A DNA stretch of 64,000 nt from Nitzschia sp. pyKryTriq1 (taxonomy: Eukaryota; Bacillariophyta; Bacillariophyceae; Bacillariales; Bacillariaceae): the NCBI GenBank assembly GCA_956465555.1, contig OY101125.1, positions 312,501 through 376,500 on the forward strand, written 5' to 3'. The translations under genes were made by a program, and so were the position numbers. Numbering within the stretch: the stretch's first letter is position 1; every line of letters starts with the position of its first letter. Positions 21,369 to 37,271 of this stretch are shown here, in pieces. The notes below the pieces were generated by a model. The model ran no database searches. It was not told the DNA's origin and was given only the letters and a program-made list of their open reading frames with translations.

Positions 21369-24300
21369 CTATAAAAGAACCAAGTTTTCCTCCTGCAAGT
21401 GGTACATCAGATAGCAAACCACGGAGCGATATGGCGCCCATTCATTCTTTTCTGCGACTTCGTCGATCAAATTACGATTTGTGGCATTGTCGGCAAAGTC
21501 GGCAGCCGACTCCAACAGCGTTTCCGATTCGAAATGATGGTTAATGTCGTATAGATCGTTCAAAAAGTTTCGCACTGTAAGGTCCCCATAAAGCATGATG
21601 TCGGCTCGGGATAGAAACTGCATGAGCACACCACCAGCACACCAGTCGCCGATTCCCTTCAATTCCATCAGCATTTTGGCAGCTTGGCGATCGGAGGCCT
21701 TGGCTATCTTTTCACCTGAGATTTTTCCTGTTTCAAAATCGTGGACGAGCGAGATGATGAAATCAGCTTTCATCCTCGAGTATCCAGCACTCACTGGCTC
21801 GCCACCGGAATGGAATGCAGCTCGGGCCTTGTCTAGAAAGACGCTGTGGTCATCATTCTTGCCACAAGGATGCGTCACCCCACACAAGTGGGGATACCCA
21901 GTGCGCTTGCCGTGCTCCTTCTCGCAGTCATGCACGAGGGCCTGGACCATTTCGTATGAAAACAGCACTTCGCGGTGACGCCCCGCCAAAAGCAATTCCA
22001 GTAAATGTGTTGGACTCTCCACGTTCGACTTCTCGCCCGATTCTGTCACTGCCTTGAATATTTGTTGCAACAGTTTCTTCTGTTGAGATGGTGTTTTGCG
22101 CTCAATACACACGCCAGCTTTGATGGCAAGTCTTCGAAGAAAGGAGTTGCCTGCATCAACGGAAACCATTGTAAATGTAATGGAACGAATACATTTATCA
22201 AAAAGACGGGCCTGCGTCGGTTGCCTGGGAGTACCGCAATCGTTGGCAAGGGCATCAGCGCCAACTCGCGCGATGAGTGCTGCAAGTTTCGGATCCTTTT
22301 GAGAGAGGTGGGTCACAGCTTGGGCAATTGTATTTCTATCCAAAACGACCGGCGGTGTGGTGTCGGAGAAGCGCATAAGCGACTCCTTCGGTAGAGCTTT
22401 TGCCTTGCCCTTGTCGCGTCGAGCGATGACAGATTTAGTTGGGGGAAAGAGCCAATTACGAACGGTAAGCGAGGCTTGCCCTTGTTTGGCTAGTGCCTTG
22501 GCTTGCTTGACGGCTCTGGGGTCCCCTTTGTTTCGTTTGACTTTGTTCAAAGGCTTGTATTTCGATCCAATCTCTTTCTTCTTTTTTGCTGGCTGTTTCG
22601 TATCCTCCTCTAAGAGCTCGTCGTCATCAGAAAGCATACTGCCTGAATCAATACTTGCGGTTGTGCTCGTGCTTGTAGCCACGGTACTATCTTCGCAGAA
22701 TTGGGCGAATGCGCCAGATTGCCCAGCTTCCTCTAGAGAACGCATCCAGGCACCACTTACTGTCCCCTTTTTTAGTTTCTTCGTCCCAACTACGGCCAAA
22801 GTGGCCTCAAGATCAATTCTTTCTCGATATTTTGTTGCCACTGGAGCAATATACTCGCGAAAAAAGTTTCCTGCTAGTCGAATGTTTGAAAATTTTGCTT
22901 CCTCAATGGTGTGTTCGGCCATCAAGACTACAAGAAGTAGATCCTTCGTGGTTTGACCTGGACGATCAATGCGACCTTTCATTTGTTCCAGGTGGTCGCC
23001 TGGTGTTGGGCGGCAAATAATTGTGTCCGCGTGTCGCTGCATATTGATCCCTTGCCCCTCGACAGTTTTGACTGCCACAATCACCCGTTTCTTGGCAGAA
23101 TCTTTCTTCCCCGAAGCTCCGACCGCTTCTTGAGAGACAGACGCCCAAGTACATGTATCCAGTCCACAAGCACGAAGTGCCCGCACGAGAAAATCTGCTT
23201 CTTGGGAAGTATCTGCAAAAATGAGTGGTTTGCGACCTTTCCGAAGAAGACTCTTTGCGACATGGGCAAATGCATCGCTCATTACCGATGACTGGAGATA
23301 CGTGGATTTTGACGCCCTTCCCTCATAAGCAGATCGAAGGAATTTTTCCAAATCAACCCAAAGTTTTCTGCCGTCGGCTTCTCCAGGCTCGTTGATTTGC
23401 TTTCGCTGGAAGGCTTCGACGATTCTGCGATATTTCTGTAGATCGCTGTTTGAGAGAGCCACCATTTCTCCTTTCATTGTCCATGATCTGTCCGTCTCGG
23501 GAACTTGACAGACGATGTGTTCATGGATGGTGGCTGGAAGCCATGGCAAAGTTGGCGGCAGCGGCGATCGAAGCATTCGGATCATGTAGAACAGCTGATC
23601 GTACTTGGACCGAAAAAAGGTAGCCGAGAGCATGAGAACGCCACAAGTTGAGACCTCAATCTGCCGCCAGGCTGACGGGGTTCGTTTGGCAGCGGCATTC
23701 TGCACCGAAAGGCACTCGTCGACAATAACAAAATCCCAGGCCGCCTGTCGAACGAATGGATGGCGACAAACGCGATCCAACGTCGAGATAACTATCGTAT
23801 TGGCGTCAATAGGAGGATGGGACTTAGCGTAGGTCAAGGAAAATAAAGATCCATCCTCCCGTTGCTCGACAACATGAAATCGTTTTGTATGGGTCGCGAT
23901 TTCCAAAAGCCATTCACGAATCAGAGCTTTCGTGGGCAACATGATCAAAACACCATGTCTTGAATGCCCCGACTCCTCGAGCCCTTTTGCGAGGCGGACC
24001 ACTGTCGCTAATGCAGTGAGAGTCTTTCCAGCGCCAACCGCTGACGCATCTGCGTGTCCTCTCCTCCCCTTTTGTACTCCTTCAACGACTTTCGAAACCG
24101 AAGCTTCTTGGTGGTCCCAGAGATGCGTTGTAATTTGTGGCAAAGGCAAGCAGTCTTCTTCATCACTAGTCGATTCTGAAATGACTTCATCCAAATCATT
24201 CTCGATTTCAAAGTCCTCCTCGTCCTCGAATTTTATCTGTCTTCTCCTGGAGTGCGCCTTCGTGTCCGTAGACCATTCTAACGAGATTTGTCTGGATGCT

Positions 24301-27300
24301 TTTTCTGAGGCTAAAGCAGCTGCACGGCGTGGGCGCTTTGCTGAACCGCCGTCGGGTTTCATCTCCGTCGTCTTCCTCTTCCTCTCTAGGTCACCACTGT
24401 GCGAGCTAATTTTGCTCCGTAACTCGTCTCTTCCAAGTCTCTCCAAGCAAATGAGAAGGTGGTAGTAGCCTGCTCCTCTGGGCCTAATGCGGAATTTCAT
24501 CGCTCCTTCCTTTCGTAAGGCGGTGGGATAAAGCATCTCGAGCCCGTGGAAGACTCGAAGCAAGACCCCTTCTGTCATGTCCCGCGGTGTACCTTCGCAA
24601 AAAGAAGCATGTGAGGAATTCAAGTGGTGTGCGCAGCCCATTCCAGATTGCATACGTACCTGTGCCGTCGTTGCATACCCCCTTACCGAGGACAACATGA
24701 TCCGTATCTCGTGTTCTTATCGCTAGTAAGATATCTCTCCAAGTATGTGAAGGTATGATGCTCTTCGTGGCAAGGGGTATCCAGTCGTAAATAATGCCCT
24801 CGCTGGGTCCAGCATTGCTGTCGTTTCGATCGGCCTCAGCCAACGAATGCAAACTAGACATTGCGTCAAGAATTGCTTTGCCGAACAACTGAGAAGATCC
24901 TAAACCATCTATACCTTCAACGTAGAGGACTGCGCGAAGCAGTTCGTAGCGCTCCGTGCCCTCATCCAATGGTACGGGCGGATACTTTGGATCGTCAAGG
25001 GTCAATGCACAAGCCGAAATCACCGAGCGAGCATCGAAGGGTTCTACCTTGACCCCCCCGACAGCAAATTGCCAAACCTTCCCTCCACTCCCATCGTCGA
25101 CCAACTTGGCGCTTCTTGTAACTTGTTCTTCACCACCCGGAATGTCCCACTGCATTCCCATCGGAGGGAGGGGCATGGGCAAAGTTACACTATGCCAGTA
25201 CTTGGCCACGGCCAATTCGGCGGCTGCCATGAGCATTTGCTCCCCCTTGGATCGATTTCGCTGTACGTAGCCAAGTGATGGTACGGCTGCAGCTCCCGAT
25301 GTCGCCCCTCCTGTTGTGGCTAATTCTTTACCCTCTTTCCTTGCCATCCCAATGCGTTGGACCAGAAGAGGCTCGTCGATGTCTCCACAAAACATGGCGG
25401 AAACAGTCTCCTTTTTCGAAGAATCGTTTGGATCCGGGGTCACTTCGATCTCAATCGCTGATGCGAAGGCTAGGATAAATGCAATTCTTCCATCATATTG
25501 TGTCAATGAAGGTCCAGCTTGGATGTGCTGAATCGCTTGAGGAAAGCCCTCAGGAGACGTATCCGATGCAATCTTCGAACTAGCGCTACTCTCGATCGCC
25601 TCAAAACAATCAACGATCTCAATTTCTCCGCTCGACAATTTGCCTGTAGGAGTAACGACCTCCCGGTACGAGCTGTAGCTACTCTTCATGGCCGATACAA
25701 CCTTCAGCGTGCTCGAATGTACCACGGATACACCTTCAGGATCTTTACCCCACGTGGCCAACCTAGCTAGCTGCACTCGTTCTTGAAATCTCGGATTGGC
25801 TTCACTAATGAGCTTTCGAACTTGTCGCGACAATGCAGGCAGGCTGTGTTTCTTCCACCTGACTGGTGGACTTTGTAAACAGGCCTGTAGGAGCACCAAC
25901 GTATAGGGCATGATACTTGGCTCGATGGCTGCAAGCCGACACTCGTTGTCCAGCTTTAAAAGACGAGTGTCACATGGGACAGCAACTTCACCTCGTTCCC
26001 ATTTTTGGATGACTGATTTCTCCCCCGCCAGTGACGCAGGAGCCTCGGGCAAATGCGATCCCTTCCAGTCGTACCAGTTCAAGTAGGCTAATGCAGCGGC
26101 TGCGGTGGTATCCCCAATGAACGCATTCCACTTGCCCCAAGCGAGGCGTCCTCCAGCAACGGACTGCGTAACCCGAATAATATTTCGAAGGTTGAGAGCT
26201 TTCTGGGCAATAAGATCTGTTGCTTGAATCGCGTTCTCGAGCTTCCACCAATCGTCATCCCGATCTACAAAACCAACCCAAGGCTGAGCGGTCACAACGC
26301 TGGCAGTACGCAAAGCCGCTGCAACTACTGCTCTACGCAAGGTGGAAGGTAATTTCCAATCCGGATCGGCCTTGGCAACCAAAGAAAGGAGGAGAAGACT
26401 TGGAAGTCCAAGACAGCCTTCGCCGTCATCAAAGGGGGATGCATCTACAAGCATGCATCCCCAAATGGCTTTGAGACACGCCAATATGGAGCCCCGTGGT
26501 GTTTGACCAAGCAAAAGCTTTGAGCAGGCTTCCAATAGAGGTGTTGGAGAGCATAGTAGGCTGCCGCGGCGCATCGCTTTTTGTAGCAGTGATGCAGGAA
26601 GTCGAATTTGAGAAACTTTGGAAGACGGACGAGGAAGCAGATCGGTCCCACATTCGGTATTTGGTGTGTCGTTGGACATCACTTTTTCTTCTGTTGCATG
26701 TTGGTCTCCAATTAATGATGTTGGGACGCCCAACATCACCGAAGGAAGATCCTTACGGTCTCCTTCGATCAGTGCCCATTCCACATCATCTGATTTGCCG
26801 CCAAGCGATTCTTCATCCTTGTAATACGAGATGGAACTGGATAGCCCCAGCTCCCCATCCCATTCTATCCTGACGACAAATATGGCTTCATCGCCAGCGT
26901 CTGGTCCAAGAAGCCCAGCTGATACTAGTCGAGCAGAAGTGAACTCCCGAGACGCAAAGGGAGGATCAGCAACGGCTACCATCTCATAGGTAGCGACTAA
27001 CCGCCGTTCAGTACTTCTAGTAGTGCCAGACCGCTTTGACAATGCACCATGGAACTCCTTGGCAGATGTAAAAGTCTTACCCACAAAGTCAGGCGGAAAC
27101 CAATCGTCTTGACTGGGAGTAACGACCAAGAAAGGACAAGGAAGCTCCACTGTTGCAGGATGGCAATAATAGTGCGATGAAGCCTCATGATCCAATGGTC
27201 GTACACTTTCTAGAGCGCGAATCGTCAAGCCGTTTTGGCGCGCCAATGCACCACGAGGAAGACCTCGTACAGCAACACTATGAGGATCATTCTTCTTCAA

Positions 27301-27984
27301 TGCTGGTGGAGGAGGGAGCGGTGCGGATCTCTTCTTCTTCTTCTTCTTTGGCGATGGTGTCACCGTGACCACAGCGGCAGCAGAGACTCCTCCTCGTCGA
27401 TGTCGTTTGGCTGGGCTGGATGTCACGATCGGCAAAACAATTTCGCATTCTTCAGAACTATCGTCGTCGTCGTCACCCGACGATGATGCTCCCGAATATT
27501 CAGACTCGATGTCATCATTCGCGTCTTCTTCTTCTTCTTCTTCTTCTTGATCTTCGTCCGATGATGACGCTAACTCGCCCTGTTTGGAAATCAAAATGGC
27601 ACGAAGCTCTCCTGCGTCATACTCTTCCACATCGCCGTCCTCGTAGACAACTTTGTACAGTCCACCAATTAGTTCAGGGTCGTCCCCTCCTCGGTACGAC
27701 GTGACTTTGCCTTGGAACATCCCAAAGCCCGGAAAGAACTAAAAAACATACGAAGAATGAATGAACGTACCGTTCGCATCATGTGTACGATGATTATTAT
27801 TGAGTGCCACGATCACCGGCGAGGAGTACACACACACAAAGTGTGCCTACGCACGTACCTTTTCGACTTTGGATCCCAACGGAATGATCATGGTGCCGGA
27901 TGGTGAGGATTCATCTTGGCTTTCAACATCGCCAACCTTCTTTTGGACGACACAGGAGCGATTATTCCGCGTTGTTCGAGTCAT
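21369..27984 (-). CDS. Tudor-like / SNF2-type helicase / AlkA-like HhH-GPD DNA glycosylase fusion
   Basis: Three exons: 27984-27859, 27738-24660, 24592-21369; about 2142 residues. Exon 1 gives MTRTTRNNRSC and joins in phase 0 to FFPGFGMFQGKV, then YKVVYEDGDVEEYD: a Tudor/PWWP-like chromatin reader (about 43-90). Acidic and basic low complexity follows (110-210), then about 850 unassigned residues. The SNF2-type ATPase has a Walker A AVGAGKT (about 1253-1259), DECL in place of DEAH (about 1360), a motif III-like LSAT, and motif VI QMKGRIDRPGQ (about 1605-1615). The C-terminus is an AlkA-type glycosylase (about 1890-2140): the HhH motif LKGIGDWCAGG (about 2046-2056), a likely catalytic Asp in LYGDLTVRNFL (about 2072), and WAPYRSVVCYLMYHL. 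Likely nuclear and base-excision related; the substrate is unknown. No frameshift seen. Confidence 0.85.
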
Positions 27985-29020: not shown

Positions 29021-30700
29021 TTAAAAGGGAGTGACCGTGGCGATATCAATCGTATCGAAAATCGTAAGTTGAGGAGGATACTTCTTGGTCGTGAAGGAGC
29101 CATTGAGAATGGTTTCCCATTCATCCTCACCGTACACGTCGTATCGATGCCACGCATCCAAAGCTCGATGTTCGAAAAAGACATCGGTACTGGACAAAAA
29201 GGCACGACGAGTAATGGCCTCGGTACCTCCTTGGAATTGCAAACCAAATTCACATCCATTGCTCATCCAAGCTTCACCATTGGTGGCATTGCTCAAACCG
29301 TCTTGCAAAAAGAGCGTTCCGTGTTGGGTCAAAGCGAGTGATTCCGGCATGGCAGTCATACCGGCGCTGGAGACGACTCCAATCTGGGCTTGATACTCAG
29401 GAATGTGAACATACTCCAAACCACGATCCGACGAGCTGGGAATCATGGTATGACGACCCGTGGTCATGTCCGCGGTGTAGGCGTTCAATGCCGTCTTGAC
29501 TTGATGGTCGAGACAAATTTCGAGCGAGAGGGCCAATCCATCGAGCATCAACCAACCGTGTTCCAACAGGGCATAACCAAGGCCGTCCAACTCGCCCTTG
29601 TAGTCGATCCACATGTCAAAATCGTACTTGCCACGAGTATAGATGGGATTCATGACTGTCGTTTGTTGATGAACGGACAGCTCGCCGTCAGGATCGATTA
29701 GTTCCGTAAAGGCCGATGTATCCAAGTTCCGGTAGGGGGTCATAAAGTCGGACGTGGACAAGTATCGCTTGGGTGCAATGAATCGCTTGCCGGCTGGTGA
29801 GGACTTTTTCGGATCGTATCCCTTGTAGACAGGAGCAAAGTTGTAAAAGAGCGAATCGTAACTGTTGTGTCGATCCTTGCTGAGGGGTTCACGAGCAATG
29901 ATGCTTCCAAACAAGAAGAGCCAATCTTCGAATCGCTTGTCCGCTACCATCTCCTCCAGTCCCTTGAGAATTTCACAGACGGGTCCACAGATACTGTCGT
30001 CACCGGGCGCTTCGTCTTCAAAGGTATACGCTCCATTGACTCCACGAAAGAAGAATTCGGGAGCAATAAAGATCTTGAGAATTTCTCCGTCGGGACCCAT
30101 ATCGCCCGGACGGCTGCTGCCGGCCAAGTGGTAGGCTTGTTCGACGGCATCCTTCATGATGGCAAGACGGGTTTGAACGTCTTGTTCGAGGTCGTAGTTT
30201 CCAATGTAACACTGGAGTTCTTCTCCGTCGTCGGTCGTCATGCTGCCGTAGCTATTCAAGCCGCGGCATTCCGGATTGTGCGTTCGGACCGTGTAGCCGT
30301 CATCATCGGTGATGTTGATAAAGGCGGGAGCACCTCCCGTATAGATTTGAAATCCCATTCCTTGGACGCGATTGTACTTGGAATTTGTGGTCGGGCGCTT
30401 GCTTTTGAAAGTAGTCGCAAAGGAAGATGATGACGATGCATCATGATGCGAGGACGCTTGATAGCGAGCAAAGCCCAGCAATAAAATAGAAGAGGCGAAA
30501 ATGGCCAAATTCAAAGCTTGGACGAGGCTCAAAAACTTGCCATGCCAAAAAGGGTGGTAACCATCGTCGTCCGATCGTTGCGACATGTTGGACGGCTCGT
30601 CGGTCGAAGTACCACCGAGCAGGTTGGTCGTTTCATCGGCATTGCGAGGCGCCATGTTGTTGGTGTTGGGAAGATGAGAGATGGGTGATGCCGATGGCAT
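29021..30700 (-). CDS. Membrane-anchored carbon-nitrogen hydrolase (nitrilase-fold) protein
   Basis: Intronless; 559 residues from the ATG at 30700 (MPSASPISHL). A later ATG at 30655 and an earlier one at 30841 are possible. The nitrilase-type triad can be placed: Glu in FIAPEFFFRG (about 215), Lys in IAPKRYLS (about 311) and Cys in LSLEICLDH (about 396), in the usual order. One hydrophobic helix (about 56-78, FLSLVQALNLAIFASSILLL) follows an N-terminal tail with NLLGG, so a type II anchor with a lumenal or extracellular catalytic domain is likely. The family hydrolyses or transfers amide and nitrile groups; the substrate is unknown. It is divergent from the GGCT-like gene. Confidence 0.72.
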   Translation of the reverse strand: MPSASPISHLPNTNNMAPRNADETTNLLGGTSTDEPSNMSQRSDDDGYHPFWHGKFLSLVQALNLAIFASSILLLGFARYQASSHHDASSSSSFATTFKSKRPTTNSKYNRVQGMGFQIYTGGAPAFINITDDDGYTVRTHNPECRGLNSYGSMTTDDGEELQCYIGNYDLEQDVQTRLAIMKDAVEQAYHLAGSSRPGDMGPDGEILKIFIAPEFFFRGVNGAYTFEDEAPGDDSICGPVCEILKGLEEMVADKRFEDWLFLFGSIIAREPLSKDRHNSYDSLFYNFAPVYKGYDPKKSSPAGKRFIAPKRYLSTSDFMTPYRNLDTSAFTELIDPDGELSVHQQTTVMNPIYTRGKYDFDMWIDYKGELDGLGYALLEHGWLMLDGLALSLEICLDHQVKTALNAYTADMTTGRHTMIPSSSDRGLEYVHIPEYQAQIGVVSSAGMTAMPESLALTQHGTLFLQDGLSNATNGEAWMSNGCEFGLQFQGGTEAITRRAFLSSTDVFFEHRALDAWHRYDVYGEDEWETILNGSFTTKKYPPQLTIFDTIDIATVTPF

Positions 30701-31319
30701 AATATGTTGTAGTTTATATTTTTTGTGAAGAACGGTTTGGGTGGTCGGCGTTTTTAGGAACGCAATTCGTCGATGGACGGGGATCCGTTGTGAATGGGAA
30801 TTGAGAGAAGACGTACTTGGTGGTTGGTCGGTGCGTGGCAATGCATTTGTGCATTTGTGGGCGAATGCATGACTGAATCTTCCGGATTCAAGTGCGGCAT
30901 TCGAGTGGTGGTCGTCGTCGGTGCGTTGTTGGGGCCTTGTGAATGTGCGGGCAGGAATATGCCACCGATGTTTGCATTTTCATCGTCACCCAGCAAAAAA
31001 GTGAGAAATTCGCTACGTGTACGGTATCCTTCGCCATTCGGAGTTGCCAGTAACTGTACCGGTACTGTACGAACTGTACCGGTTGGTCTACTAAAGGAAA
31101 GTGGCGATCGTGCGTTGAGCGTGTGGGAACCCTATGAACGCAATTGCACGTTGCATTCTACGGAGGATGGACGGACGGACGATATTTGGGTCGAATGGTT
31201 CAAATTAAAATGCCGCGTTGGGTGAAAAAAAAATCTTTTTTTCGTAGAGATTCATTCGACAATGGTCCCAGCGACCTATGACGGCACTTTGATTTGTATG
31301 TTTCCTCTCAGTCCTTTGG
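30701..31319. other. Divergent promoter region
   Basis: Separates the nitrilase-like gene (-) from the GGCT-like gene (+). ACCGGTAC words lie at 31057-31082. A 143-codon plus-strand frame (30794-31225) has no recognised domain; see rejected items. Confidence 0.45.
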
Positions 31320-34176: not shown

Positions 34177-34673
34177 CCGTACGGATGTATAATCTGGTGG
34201 ATTTTAGGTCCTAGTACTTCTTCCCTTTATCTTGCTAGTAGTACGTGTACTTTGTAGCGCACTTGACCTCCGTTCGCTCAGACTACGAGTATTATGAGAT
34301 GATGATTCGAGGCATGTTGTAGAACAACACAGTGGTCTGTCGGTCAGCCTATACTGCACAAGTACCTGGTCCACATGGAATCAGGAACTTTTGCCTTTCA
34401 ATTTTGCACGACGCGACGAACGCCCATTCGATTTTTAGTCGGAGTGGTCTAAAGAAGGCGCGAAATTAATGAAAAACGATCGATGGTTTTCCCCCCCTCC
34501 TCGGCTTGCTTCGACGATGGTGGACGACTGAGGTTTGCGCATGCAGCGGTCGGTGGATCGTGGATCCACCTGAACCATTCCTTTCTTCCTTCCTTCATTT
34601 GTCCATCGTATTGTATAGAGCAGGAAATCATTTTACACATCGCTCACTCTGACAAACAACGACACAAATCAGC
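34177..34673. other. Intergenic upstream of NAR1
   Basis: 3' region of EMC3 and promoter of the NAR1 gene. No supported gene. A C8 run lies near 34490 and a TTCCTTCC run near 34578. Confidence 0.5.
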
Positions 34674-37271
34674 ATGAATCGTCATTCTGCTGCGGTGGTC
34701 CTAGACAATGTCGACGACTACTTGGCACCCTCACAGGCGTGCATCAATCCTCTCTTTCAGCCGCCATTGCCAGCGGACAAAGACGACGACGACAAGGCTA
34801 AGCAGCAGGACAACGACTACCCGTCATCCAAACCCGCTGCTGCCGCTACTGTCGTGGTCCCTCGTCGTCGACGACGAGTTGTACGAAGGCCCGTGGAAGA
34901 ACCACCAGCACCAGCAACCATCGAAAGATCCAAGCAGGAGGAAGAGAACAGTATCAACGTTGCTGGTACCACCGACAACCAAAAGAAAGAGCAGACACCG
35001 GCTGTCAAGGCCTCAATTGCCGACTGTTTGGCTTGTTCTGGATGTGTCACGACCGCGGAAACCGTATTGTTGGAACAGCATCATTCCTTGACGTCGTTGC
35101 GTCAACGACTGCTGGTGGATAATACGAATAAGAATGATATGGGTGATGTTGGTGATGGGAAGAATAAGCAACGCCGTCACCGTCGTCGAGCCCTGACGAT
35201 ATCTCCCAATTCCATGGCAGACTTGTGTCGACACTGGAATTTGACATCATCGCGGTCCTCCAGCAGCAGCAGCAGCAAGACAACTCACACGTCAAGAAGT
35301 AGTACCACAAGTACTGTCATGGCCTCTTTGGCCGTGTTACTCGAGCAAATCTTGCAAGTTCAATTGGTGATTGATGGAAATGTGCCTTTAGAATGGACTT
35401 GGCAAGAGGAAGCTCAAGAATTTGTGGAACACTATCGTCGGCGTATCGTCAATAAGAAGAGTAAGGCCCAGCATCATCATCATCCACCACCATCAACAAA
35501 AACCAAGCCGCCGCCGCCGCCACCACCACCACCATCCGTGGCCATTGATGCCACTCACACCATGTATTATTTGCCAGACGGTACCACTCCCGTAGTCGTC
35601 ACCCCAACGACGACGACAGCATCTTCTGGTAATGATGATGATTCTGCTGCCAACGATGATGATCATGTTGACCACGATCCAGCATATTTGCCCTCTACTA
35701 CTATTTTGGAGTTTCCATTAATTTCGGGATCTTGTCCGGCATTGGTCTGTTTGGTTGAGAAATCCATGCATTCCTTGGTCCCTCACTTGTCCAAGACTTT
35801 ATCTCCCATGAGTCGAATGGGATGGGCATTGAAACAACCACAACCAGTGGAGAATCCAAATGAAACGGATAATGCTGATGATGATGATGCTGCTACTACT
35901 ACTACTTCGTCGTGGGAACATTGGGCCGTCATGCCTTGTCACGACAAAAAATTGGAAGCTTCTCGTAAAGACTTTTTGTTCAATAAGAAGCCAAATCACG
36001 GAGATGGTTCAAACGATGGTACAGCAGTAGCTGCTGTGGATTTGGTCATCACCACGGTAGAATTGGTCGAATTGGTGGAAGAATGGAGACAAACAACAAC
36101 AACGACAACAACTTCATCATCATCGTCGTCGTCCTTGTCCATGCGAGACTTTTTGGATACCTTGCGAGCATCATCATCATCATCGTCGTCGTCGTCGGCA
36201 GCTCAGATCTGGTGTCCGGGAGACAATTGGTCCATTTCAGAGCTGGAACATCAGTTGGAACAATCCCGTGTGATTGTTTGGACCAACAACAGCAACAGCA
36301 ACAATGACAACTTTATGGATACTGCCGACGGCGACGGCGACGACGACGAGGACGACCCATCCACCATGATGATATCCGACTCCAACTCCTCCTTTTCCTC
36401 GAAGAACATAATACCGAAACTAGCGTTTGCCTCGGGTGGTCATGCGGATTATATCTTTCGCTACGCCGCACGAGAATTGTTTGGCTACACCTTCTCCTCT
36501 TCCTCCTCGTTGGAACAGGAAAAGGTCGTGTGGCAGCCCACCTTTGGTGGTGGTGGCGGCGGCGCTGCTGCTACTGGTGCTGCTGCTACTGGGAGTAATA
36601 CTACTATCAAGTCTCTTCGATTGGCCAATCAACAAAAGAAACAACAGTCGTATCAAGCCTGTTTGTATCGTCACAAGGATGGAAGTTTGTCGCAGCAGCC
36701 ACCACCACTGCCACAAACAAAACCGATCGACAAGAATCATGACGATCCTGCTGCTGCTGCTGCGGGAGAATCATCAGCATCCTCCTCCACCCCAATCTTA
36801 CGATTTGGTATTGTTCGGGGAATGCAAACCATGCAACGAGCTTTGAAGGATATGATGCAAGACGACGACGGAGATTCTTTGGATTATTTGGAGGCCATGG
36901 CTTGTCCACATGGATGTGTCAATGGAGGTGGAAGTGTTCGTAGTACCAATACTACCAGTACTACACCACTTCTTCCCACTACCACCGCGACAAACACGAT
37001 TGGTGTTGGGAGTATTTCTTCCATCAGTACGACTACTACTGCTACTGCTGCTGCGCCAAGTGGCGTTTTGGTCAAGGAAACTCCTACGGAAACCAAGTTA
37101 CGGGTAACTCAAACCCTCGACCACTTGGTGGTTCCACCACCATTATTTGCAGCGACCATGCCAGCTCTTTCCAAGAGACCACGGTATCAAACGCATTATC
37201 ATGTGGTGCCTCCGATGCATCATACCATGGGTGCGGCAGCTGGAGTGAAAGTACAAGACATGCAATGGTAA
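34674..37271 (+). CDS. NAR1: Cytosolic Fe-S assembly factor NAR1 (iron-only hydrogenase-like)
   Basis: Intronless, 865 residues. NAR1 works in the cytosolic iron-sulfur assembly (CIA) pathway, passing clusters to the targeting complex. All eight expected Cys positions can be placed: ACINPLFQP (first Cys), DCLACSGCVTTAE (three), GSCPALVCLVEK, VMPCHDKKLEA, and ACPHGCVNGGG (two). The hydrogenase-like segments KLAFASGGHADYIFRYAARE and LRFGIVRGMQTMQ also match. The protein is much longer than the usual 450-600 residues because of poly-Ser, poly-Thr, poly-Asp, poly-Pro and poly-Ala inserts between the conserved blocks. It ends in Trp (VQDMQW), which fits a C-terminal aromatic CIA-targeting tail. 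Confidence 0.93.
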   Translation: MNRHSAAVVLDNVDDYLAPSQACINPLFQPPLPADKDDDDKAKQQDNDYPSSKPAAAATVVVPRRRRRVVRRPVEEPPAPATIERSKQEEENSINVAGTTDNQKKEQTPAVKASIADCLACSGCVTTAETVLLEQHHSLTSLRQRLLVDNTNKNDMGDVGDGKNKQRRHRRRALTISPNSMADLCRHWNLTSSRSSSSSSSKTTHTSRSSTTSTVMASLAVLLEQILQVQLVIDGNVPLEWTWQEEAQEFVEHYRRRIVNKKSKAQHHHHPPPSTKTKPPPPPPPPPSVAIDATHTMYYLPDGTTPVVVTPTTTTASSGNDDDSAANDDDHVDHDPAYLPSTTILEFPLISGSCPALVCLVEKSMHSLVPHLSKTLSPMSRMGWALKQPQPVENPNETDNADDDDAATTTTSSWEHWAVMPCHDKKLEASRKDFLFNKKPNHGDGSNDGTAVAAVDLVITTVELVELVEEWRQTTTTTTTSSSSSSSLSMRDFLDTLRASSSSSSSSSAAQIWCPGDNWSISELEHQLEQSRVIVWTNNSNSNNDNFMDTADGDGDDDEDDPSTMMISDSNSSFSSKNIIPKLAFASGGHADYIFRYAARELFGYTFSSSSSLEQEKVVWQPTFGGGGGGAAATGAAATGSNTTIKSLRLANQQKKQQSYQACLYRHKDGSLSQQPPPLPQTKPIDKNHDDPAAAAAGESSASSSTPILRFGIVRGMQTMQRALKDMMQDDDGDSLDYLEAMACPHGCVNGGGSVRSTNTTSTTPLLPTTTATNTIGVGSISSISTTTTATAAAPSGVLVKETPTETKLRVTQTLDHLVVPPPLFAATMPALSKRPRYQTHYHVVPPMHHTMGAAAGVKVQDMQW

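What the first reader, a model, noticed from the sequence alone, without database searches (positions are those of the whole stretch)
21369..27984. Tudor-like + SNF2-type helicase + AlkA-like DNA glycosylase in one protein
Seen: one spliced frame of about 2142 codons holds FFPGFGMFQGKV (reader-like), AVGAGKT / DECL / QMKGRIDRPGQ (SNF2-type helicase) and LKGIGDWCAGG with a downstream YGDLTVR Asp (HhH-GPD glycosylase). Known: glycosylases start base excision; SNF2 motors remodel chromatin; kinetoplastid JBP2 shows that SNF2 motors can be fused to base-modifying enzymes. Inference: a chromatin-targeted machine that moves nucleosomes or DNA while removing a damaged or modified base, possibly a demethylation-like or alkylation-repair route. 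I do not recognise this architecture as a described one.
Basis: partly seen in the sequence, partly recalled or inferred. Interest (0 to 1): 0.85.

Follow-up and report, generated by a model that had tools for sequence, protein, structure and literature searches.

The report
DNA motor fused to repair enzyme
A single large protein of an algal-looking eukaryote joins a histone-mark reader, a DNA-tracking motor and a domain of the kind that cuts altered bases out of DNA, a combination I did not find described, and the part that recognises the base looks changed from its known relatives.

Summary
One minus-strand gene of three exons (27984-27859, 27738-24660, 24592-21369) encodes 2142 residues: a PTM/DIR17-type Tudor domain (4.1e-11), a long middle region, a divergent SNF2-type motor, and a C-terminal AlkA/Mag-type glycosylase domain with helix-hairpin-helix and catalytic Asp (D2072). 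Motor and glycosylase share one intron-free exon. Pfam's HhH-GPD model does not score the domain, but phmmer against solved structures (3.2e-6), an AlkA profile (105 bits; best of 200 shuffles 9.9) and Foldseek (Mag2, Mag1, AlkA) find it. A 1287-residue protein of an unnamed bacterial genome (G497) is co-linear with parts of the middle and with the motor (37% identity), runs across the second splice junction, and lacks Tudor and glycosylase. So a motor family without a Pfam name appears joined to a reader and a glycosylase. Catalytic residues are kept, but Gln124, Gln in 89 of 89 relatives, is Thr, and position 222, a large hydrophobic residue in 89 of 89, is Gly. Most likely a chromatin-targeted base-excision motor with shifted substrate choice; a non-catalytic lesion sensor is the main rival. 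Lhr is a known helicase-glycosylase of other folds.

The parts
27859..27984 (-). exon 1 (residues 1-42)
   Evidence: GT-AG model; completes the Tudor domain
27739..27858 (-). intron 1, 120 bp, GTACGT...TTTTTTAG
24660..27738 (-). exon 2 (residues 43-1068 plus one base)
   Evidence: open for 1026 codons
24593..24659 (-). intron 2, 67 bp, GTACGT...GCGAAG
   Evidence: the bacterial homologue aligns across it
21369..24592 (-). exon 3 (to residue 2142 and stop); holds motor and glycosylase in one frame
   Evidence: open for 1073 codons
27592..27876 (-). Tudor domain, PTM/DIR17 type, residues 37-91 (interrupted by intron 1)
   Evidence: Pfam PF21743, 4.1e-11, 42.9 bits
27325..27567 (-). acidic and Lys-rich, NLS-like stretch, residues about 100-180
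   Evidence: sequence
24417..26652 (-). middle region, residues 405-1127; matches a bacterial protein at 405-519 and 895-1127, not above shuffles between
22827..24176 (-). SNF2-type motor, residues 1208-1657: AVGAGKT 1253, DECL 1360, SATFF, GQGIN, GRIDRPGQ 1608
   Evidence: Pfam PF00176 and PF04851; 37% identity over 454 columns to bacterial L101
22341..22826 (-). linker, Ser- and Lys-rich, residues 1658-1819; 0 stops in frame, 7 and 8 in the others
21378..22340 (-). AlkA/Mag-type HhH-GPD glycosylase domain, residues about 1820-2140, with inserts of about 30 (after 1897) and 60 residues (after 1934)
21630..21662 (-). helix-hairpin-helix LKGIGDWCAGG, residues 2046-2056; G2056 stands at the Tyr222 position of E. 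coli AlkA
21582..21584 (-). catalytic Asp D2072 (E. coli AlkA D238); Asp in 89 of 89 relatives
22170..22172 (-). T1876 in place of Gln124 of E. coli AlkA (Gln in 89 of 89 relatives)

Best explanation
A nuclear base-excision machine. The Tudor domain docks the protein on a histone mark (inferred). The SNF2-type motor, of a family without a Pfam name and with a long N-terminal region, binds and translocates on DNA using ATP, loosening nucleosomes or opening DNA (motifs shown, action inferred). The C-terminal AlkA-type domain flips out a base and hydrolyses its glycosidic bond with Asp2072, as a monofunctional glycosylase with no lyase Lys, leaving an abasic site for the usual repair enzymes (catalytic residues shown, activity inferred). 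Because the base pocket has lost the conserved Gln and the large residue at the Tyr222 position, its substrate probably differs from the 3-methyladenine class.
For: Tudor. Motor: Pfam above cut-offs; motifs I, II, III, V and VI present and largely shared with the bacterial homologue. Glycosylase: phmmer of the domain to B. halodurans AlkA 3.2e-6, S. pombe Mag1 1.6e-4, Mag2 3.1e-4; AlkA profile 105.3 bits against at most 9.9 for 200 shuffles; the 8 Foldseek rows at E<=0.001 are Mag2, Mag1 or AlkA type; W218 and D238 equivalents kept, Q124 to T, Y222 to G, W272 to Y. Motor and glycosylase in one exon. Functional precedent: E. coli Lhr, an SF2 helicase whose C-terminal region is a uracil-DNA glycosylase that needs an Asp and works better with the helicase domains present (PMC10953399, passages).
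Against: No expression, biochemistry or second eukaryotic copy could be examined. Pfam PF00730 does not score the domain, although it scores the relatives scanned (7 of 7; 4 of 5 frames, the fifth being a motor). Pfam Helicase_C does not score the motor's second lobe. The pocket changes could mean loss of catalysis. The model has low confidence in an insert (mean pLDDT 73.5) and a moderate fit (TM-score 0.40-0.49 by query, 0.56-0.71 by target, for the 8 best rows). The motor is far from the remodellers of known structure (E 0.15 at best).
Confidence: 0.52

Rival explanations
1. The C-terminal domain is a Mag2-like lesion or abasic-site sensor without base excision; it parks the motor at damaged DNA.
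For: The top four Foldseek rows are S. pombe Mag2, titled a glycosylase homologue that sculpts DNA at abasic sites (only titles were seen). Pocket positions Gln124 and Tyr222 are replaced.
Against: The catalytic Asp and the Trp218 equivalent are kept. Mag2 keeps Gln where this protein has Thr (alignment), so the changes are not Mag2's. PMC8620282 (passages) lists Mag2 among characterised monofunctional glycosylases, so its inactivity is not agreed there.
Confidence: 0.27
2. Epigenetic eraser: the altered pocket accepts a deliberate modified base (for example a methylated adenine, a deaminated or oxidised methylcytosine) at chromatin chosen by the Tudor domain, giving a demethylation-like route.
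For: Reader plus motor plus base-removing domain in one chain; DNMT5b enzymes, found in diatoms among others, carry SNF2 and in some cases Tudor domains (PMC9998398, passages and section 6). Pocket changed.
Against: No lyase Lys as in DEMETER/ROS1 (placement recalled); no DNMT match at E<=1; the family is AlkA, whose known substrates are mainly damaged bases. No direct evidence.
Confidence: 0.12
3. A genome-defence or anti-selfish-DNA factor, in which the motor patrols DNA and the glycosylase damages foreign or unmodified DNA.
For: The motor's bacterial profile matches include Dpd DpdE, DISARM DrmD, Zorya ZorD and BREX BrxH helicases.
Against: Those matches are weak and general to bacterial SNF2-like motors (best PADLOC E 1.4e-11, PbeA). 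Of 8 neighbours of the bacterial homologue scanned with Pfam none is a known defence gene, one has no match; they were not scanned with PADLOC.
Confidence: 0.05
4. Two neighbouring genes, or an assembly error, mistaken for one.
For: No transcript was seen; codon scores at the exon 2/3 join are weak.
Against: Bacterial homologue co-linear across the join; motor and glycosylase share one exon.
Confidence: 0.04

Closest known systems
E. coli Lhr (SF2 helicase with C-terminal uracil-DNA glycosylase)
   Same: One chain joins an SF2 motor to an Asp-dependent glycosylase at the C-terminus (PMC10953399, passages).
   Different: Lhr's C-terminal region has winged-helix domains like AlkZ; here the fold is HhH-GPD of AlkA type, the motor SNF2-type, and a Tudor domain is added.
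S. pombe Mag1 / Mag2, bacterial single-domain AlkA
   Same: Fold, HhH, catalytic Asp, C-terminal WxPYRS helix.
   Different: The solved ones are chains of about 217-233 residues; pocket residues differ at Gln124 and 222; here inserts of about 30 and 60 residues.
DNMT5a/b (methyltransferase plus SNF2; some DNMT5b with Tudor)
   Same: Tudor and SNF2 modules joined to a DNA-base enzyme (PMC9998398, passages and section 6).
   Different: No methyltransferase match here; the base enzyme is a glycosylase.
Kinetoplastid JBP2 (SNF2 plus TET/JBP oxygenase; recalled)
   Same: SNF2 motor fused to a base-altering enzyme.
   Different: Oxygenase, not glycosylase; not compared by sequence.
1287-residue protein of unnamed bacterial genome G497 (locus L101)
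   Same: Same motor (37% identity) and parts of the middle region, co-linear.
   Different: No Tudor, no glycosylase: both score within shuffles.

Membership tests
AlkA/Mag HhH-GPD glycosylases | whole-domain similarity to the family | tested here: met
   105.3 bits to a profile of 89 relatives; phmmer 3.2e-6; Foldseek. Pfam PF00730 not hit.
AlkA/Mag HhH-GPD glycosylases | HhH hairpin and catalytic Asp at fixed spacing | tested here: met
   LKGIGDW 2046-2052, D2072 aligned with E. coli D238
AlkA/Mag HhH-GPD glycosylases | conserved base-pocket residues (Gln124, residue 222, Trp272) | tested here: not met
   T1876, G2056, Y2132; Tyr at the last place occurs in 5 of 89. So it has the family's fold and catalytic residues; shared AlkA substrates are not claimed.
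AlkA/Mag HhH-GPD glycosylases | excision of alkylated bases | not testable with these tools
   needs biochemistry
Bifunctional HhH-GPD (Nth, OGG1, DEMETER/ROS1) | lyase Lys in the hairpin | tested here: not met
   Trp2052 at that place (placement of the Lys recalled)
SNF2 family motors | SF2 motifs with the SNF2-type motif VI ending in RxGQ (motif names recalled) | tested here: met
   AVGAGKT, DECL, SATFF, GQGIN, GRIDRPGQ; PF00176 36.2 bits, cut-off 24.9; Helicase_C not matched
SNF2 family motors | close kinship to a named remodeller subfamily | tested here: not met
   best single-sequence PDB motor match E 0.15, ISW1
DNMT5 | cytosine methyltransferase domain | tested here: not met
   no PF00145 match at E<=1 in residues 43-2142
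Lhr | Lhr core and AlkZ-like C-terminal domain | tested here: not met
   no Lhr or AlkZ match among Pfam and NCBIfam rows; works-like only
Tudor readers | PTM/DIR17 Tudor profile over its full length | tested here: met
   1-48 of 48, 42.9 bits; ligand not testable

The most novel reading that the evidence does not exclude
A one-chain reader-motor-eraser: the Tudor domain selects chromatin, an unnamed SNF2-type motor family works the DNA, and an AlkA-derived domain with a rebuilt pocket excises a programmed modified base, a demethylation route unrelated to TET/TDG and DEMETER.
Probability: 0.12. Interest if true: 0.88.

Novelty: new variant of a known kind. Interest (0 to 1): 0.63.

Why it matters
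Base excision in chromatin is usually pictured as separate remodellers and glycosylases; a natural fusion gives a single protein in which that coupling can be tested. The kept catalytic Asp with a changed pocket makes a definite prediction of new substrate choice. The bacterial homologue marks a rare motor family without a name in Pfam, and shows which parts differ between the two. If the substrate were an epigenetic base, it would be a new eraser type.

Tried and rejected
Scans of viral contigs with the two long frames and with two motor alignments found no relatives, and an exact motif VI pattern found none. The AlkA alignment found 9 viral-contig loci with frames of 202-245 residues. tblastn of the motor against 96 loci (89 AlkA loci and L001-L007) at E<=1 found no motor match. 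PHROGs gave for the motor two DNA-helicase families and weaker ones. AlphaFold2 of the middle region without an alignment was useless (pLDDT 35).

Prokaryotes with the motor or the fusion: with motor plus glycosylase as query at E<=1e-6, 9 of 386 genomes in the phylum of G001 matched, at 24-33% identity, and 15 of 392 in the phylum of G002, of which only G497 strongly; no listed place covers both halves, but at most two first-look candidates per genome were scored. Six longer frames from these calls and one search were read: three hold a general SNF2-like motor and three an AlkA-type domain, none both. With the G497 motor as query: 0 of 10, 0 of 398 and 0 of 296 genomes, without a positive control there; with the G497 protein or its motor, 1 of 6 in the order and in the class of G497, the same genome; no match in phages or plasmids. 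Idea that the middle is a methyltransferase: rejected, no match. PIP and APIM motifs: none.

Papers: ten searches ran. Seven of them (10, 17, 20, 51, 59, 64, 65) aimed at a glycosylase-SNF2/helicase fusion or its setting in algae; in their listings I saw no title or abstract start describing this architecture. Lhr was found. One term was badly formed and could match little. The library holds open-licence papers only.
Full report
Gene. On the minus strand, exons 27984-27859, 27738-24660 and 24592-21369 join into 2142 codons; of the combinations tried that kept GT-AG ends and an open frame, this was the only one printed. Both introns begin GTACGT (120 and 67 bp). Exons 2 and 3 are open for 1026 and 1073 codons, while their other frames hold 38 and 51, and 40 and 42, stops. 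Two homology tests support the joins. Adding exon 1 extends the Tudor match to the full profile, 31.8 to 42.9 bits. A bacterial protein aligns through the exon 2/3 join: residues 1001-1150 score 143 when spliced, 68 when exon 2 is read through, 100 for the exon 3 part alone. Codon scores near that join are weak (close to zero or below in all frames) and do not decide it. Motor, linker and glycosylase are in one exon, so their fusion does not rest on a splice.

Setting. Neighbouring frames match EMC3/TMCO1, iron-only hydrogenase C-terminal domain, POT transporter, fasciclin, ShK and 2OG-Fe(II) oxygenase families. With the short GT-AG introns this is a eukaryote; that it is a diatom or a near relative is my inference from recalled knowledge. 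No genome of the window is held, and no eukaryote collection was on hand, so conservation among eukaryotes could not be tested.

Tudor and N-terminal region. PF21743 (PTM/DIR17 Tudor) matches residues 37-91 at 4.1e-11. Acidic and Lys-rich stretches follow (KRHR 153, KKKK 173; more at 1154, 1673, 1738, 1754), which look like nuclear targeting signals (inference).

Motor. ResIII (1.5e-9) and SNF2-rel_dom (4.7e-9) exceed their cut-offs; on the shorter segment the DEAD model also does. Motifs I, II, III, V and VI are present (AVGAGKT, DECL, SATFF, GQGIN, GRIDRPGQ; motif names recalled). Against this, Pfam's Helicase_C is not among the matches, and the best single-sequence match to a solved motor is ISW1 at E 0.15. 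NCBIfam, PADLOC and PHROGs give general bacterial and phage SNF2-like helicases.

Glycosylase. Against solved structures the last 320 residues match B. halodurans AlkA (3.2e-6), S. pombe Mag1 (1.6e-4), Mag2 (3.1e-4) and a D. radiodurans AlkA (1.7e-3) (organisms from the titles). In plasmids tblastn hit 10 of 72,556 records over 28-42% of the query, 7 annotated as 3-methyladenine glycosylase and 3 without a listed gene. An AlkA profile from 89 loci (80 genome, 9 viral-contig) scores 105.3 bits; the best of 200 shuffles scores 9.9 and the reversed sequence -1.5. The 80 were the best kept of 476 confirmed stretches; they were fetched with an alignment led by the window domain, and the search patterns fixed parts of GIGxW and the PYRS motif, so the invariance of those columns is partly by construction. 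The Gln124, residue 222 and Asp238 columns were not in the patterns. Against this, Pfam PF00730 gave nothing at E up to 10, although it scores the relatives scanned (7 of 7; 4 of the 5 frames, the fifth being a motor), and NCBIfam gave only weak matches, to ogg (0.04), MobC (0.045) and AlkA (0.067). AlphaFold2 with 45 rows gave mean pLDDT 73.5 and pTM 0.68, 90 or more in 86 of 320 residues and under 50 in 56, mostly in an insert. Foldseek's 8 PDB rows at E<=0.001 are Mag2, Mag1 or AlkA type, TM-score 0.40-0.49 by query and 0.56-0.71 by target; OGG1 chains follow from rank 12 at E 0.016.

Active site. By alignment with E. coli AlkA (locus L100), Trp218 is W2052 and Asp238 is D2072 (Asp in 89 of 89). 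Gln124 (89 of 89) is T1876. The Tyr222 position (Met 76, Ile 10, Val 2, Leu 1 of 89) is G2056. The position after Gln124 (Gln in 84, Met in 3 of 89) is M1877, so that change has precedents. Trp272 (Trp 82, Tyr 5 of 89) is Y2132. PMC12785776 (passages) lists Gly123, Trp218, Tyr222, Asp238 and Trp272 among AlkA residues that contact the modelled ligand and names Trp218 and Asp238 as catalytic; that Gln124 lines the pocket is recalled. The catalytic pair is thus kept and the recognition surface changed. The Lys of bifunctional enzymes is absent (W2052 in its place; placement recalled).

Bacterial homologue. Searching genomes with motor plus glycosylase gave one strong hit: G497, 45% identity over the best piece, E 2.8e-55, in a frame of 1289 codons. 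The 1287-residue protein (L101 6435-10298, minus) aligns in order with window residues 405-519, 895-1127 and 1208-1657 (motor). Local scores against 100 shuffles each: 405-519 103 (max 62), 895-1060 75 (max 52), 1025-1127 143 (max 46). Segments 520-700 (48, max 56) and 680-900 (39, max 51) are within shuffles, and the 100-400 segment is only just above (62, max 59). Tudor (28, max 50) and glycosylase (38, max 55) have no counterpart; the linker segment 1660-1830 scored 55 (max 48) at a place out of order. Its neighbours include a HEAT/LRR protein, a histone-deacetylase-fold protein and a BacA family gene; none of the 8 scanned is a glycosylase. It is rare in what I sampled: 1 of 392 genomes in its phylum, 0 of 398 and 0 of 296 in two others (no positive control in the last two); in the phylum of G001 the 9 of 386 matches were weak. 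Six longer frames from the weak hits hold motor or glycosylase, never both. Direction of transfer is open.

How it works. Shown: one gene model with homology across both joins, a Tudor profile, a motor with its motifs, an AlkA-type fold with catalytic Asp. Inferred: nuclear place, histone docking, DNA translocation, base flipping and hydrolysis, release to abasic-site repair. The nearest tested precedent is E. coli Lhr, a helicase whose C-terminal region is an Asp-dependent uracil-DNA glycosylase that acts better with the helicase present (PMC10953399, passages); it works like this but is not the same family. DNMT5b, found in diatoms among others, joins SNF2 and in some cases Tudor modules to a methyltransferase (PMC9998398, passages and section 6); here no methyltransferase is found. 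PMC8620282 was seen in passages only: Mag1 initiates alkylation repair in fission yeast and Mag2 may play a role.

Verdict. I place it as a new variant of the helicase-glycosylase kind, with an unnamed motor family. Whether it cuts normal damage, a special base or nothing at all is the open question, and an activity panel would answer it.

Noticed in passing
L069:3105-5168 (+) and L107:532-2529 (+): Two frames (688 and 666 residues) of one Kiritimatiellae MAG each join an N6/N4 DNA methylase domain to a C-terminal HhH-GPD glycosylase: a base writer fused to a base remover, twice in one genome.
   Followed up: partly
L014:402-1772 (+) and L016:3987-5357 (+): Marine Nitrosopelagicus frames of 457 residues join a RIO1-like kinase domain to an HhH-GPD glycosylase.
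   Followed up: partly
L104:629-2524 (+) and L108:791-2086 (-): Further AlkA-type fusions: DUF488 plus AlkA in L104, and AlkA plus O6-methylguanine methyltransferase in L108.
   Followed up: no
L006:1303-1836 (+): An AlkA-type gene directly follows a SacI-family restriction endonuclease and an adenine methylase on an Aeromonas plasmid.
   Followed up: no
L101:12495-13466 (-): A histone-deacetylase-fold gene and a HEAT/LRR protein lie upstream of the bacterial motor homologue.
   Followed up: no
window 34653-37271 (+): An 872-codon frame with an iron-only hydrogenase C-terminal domain, possibly Nar1-like.
   Followed up: no
window 29021-30979 (-): A 652-codon frame beside the gene with no Pfam match at E<=0.001.
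   Followed up: no
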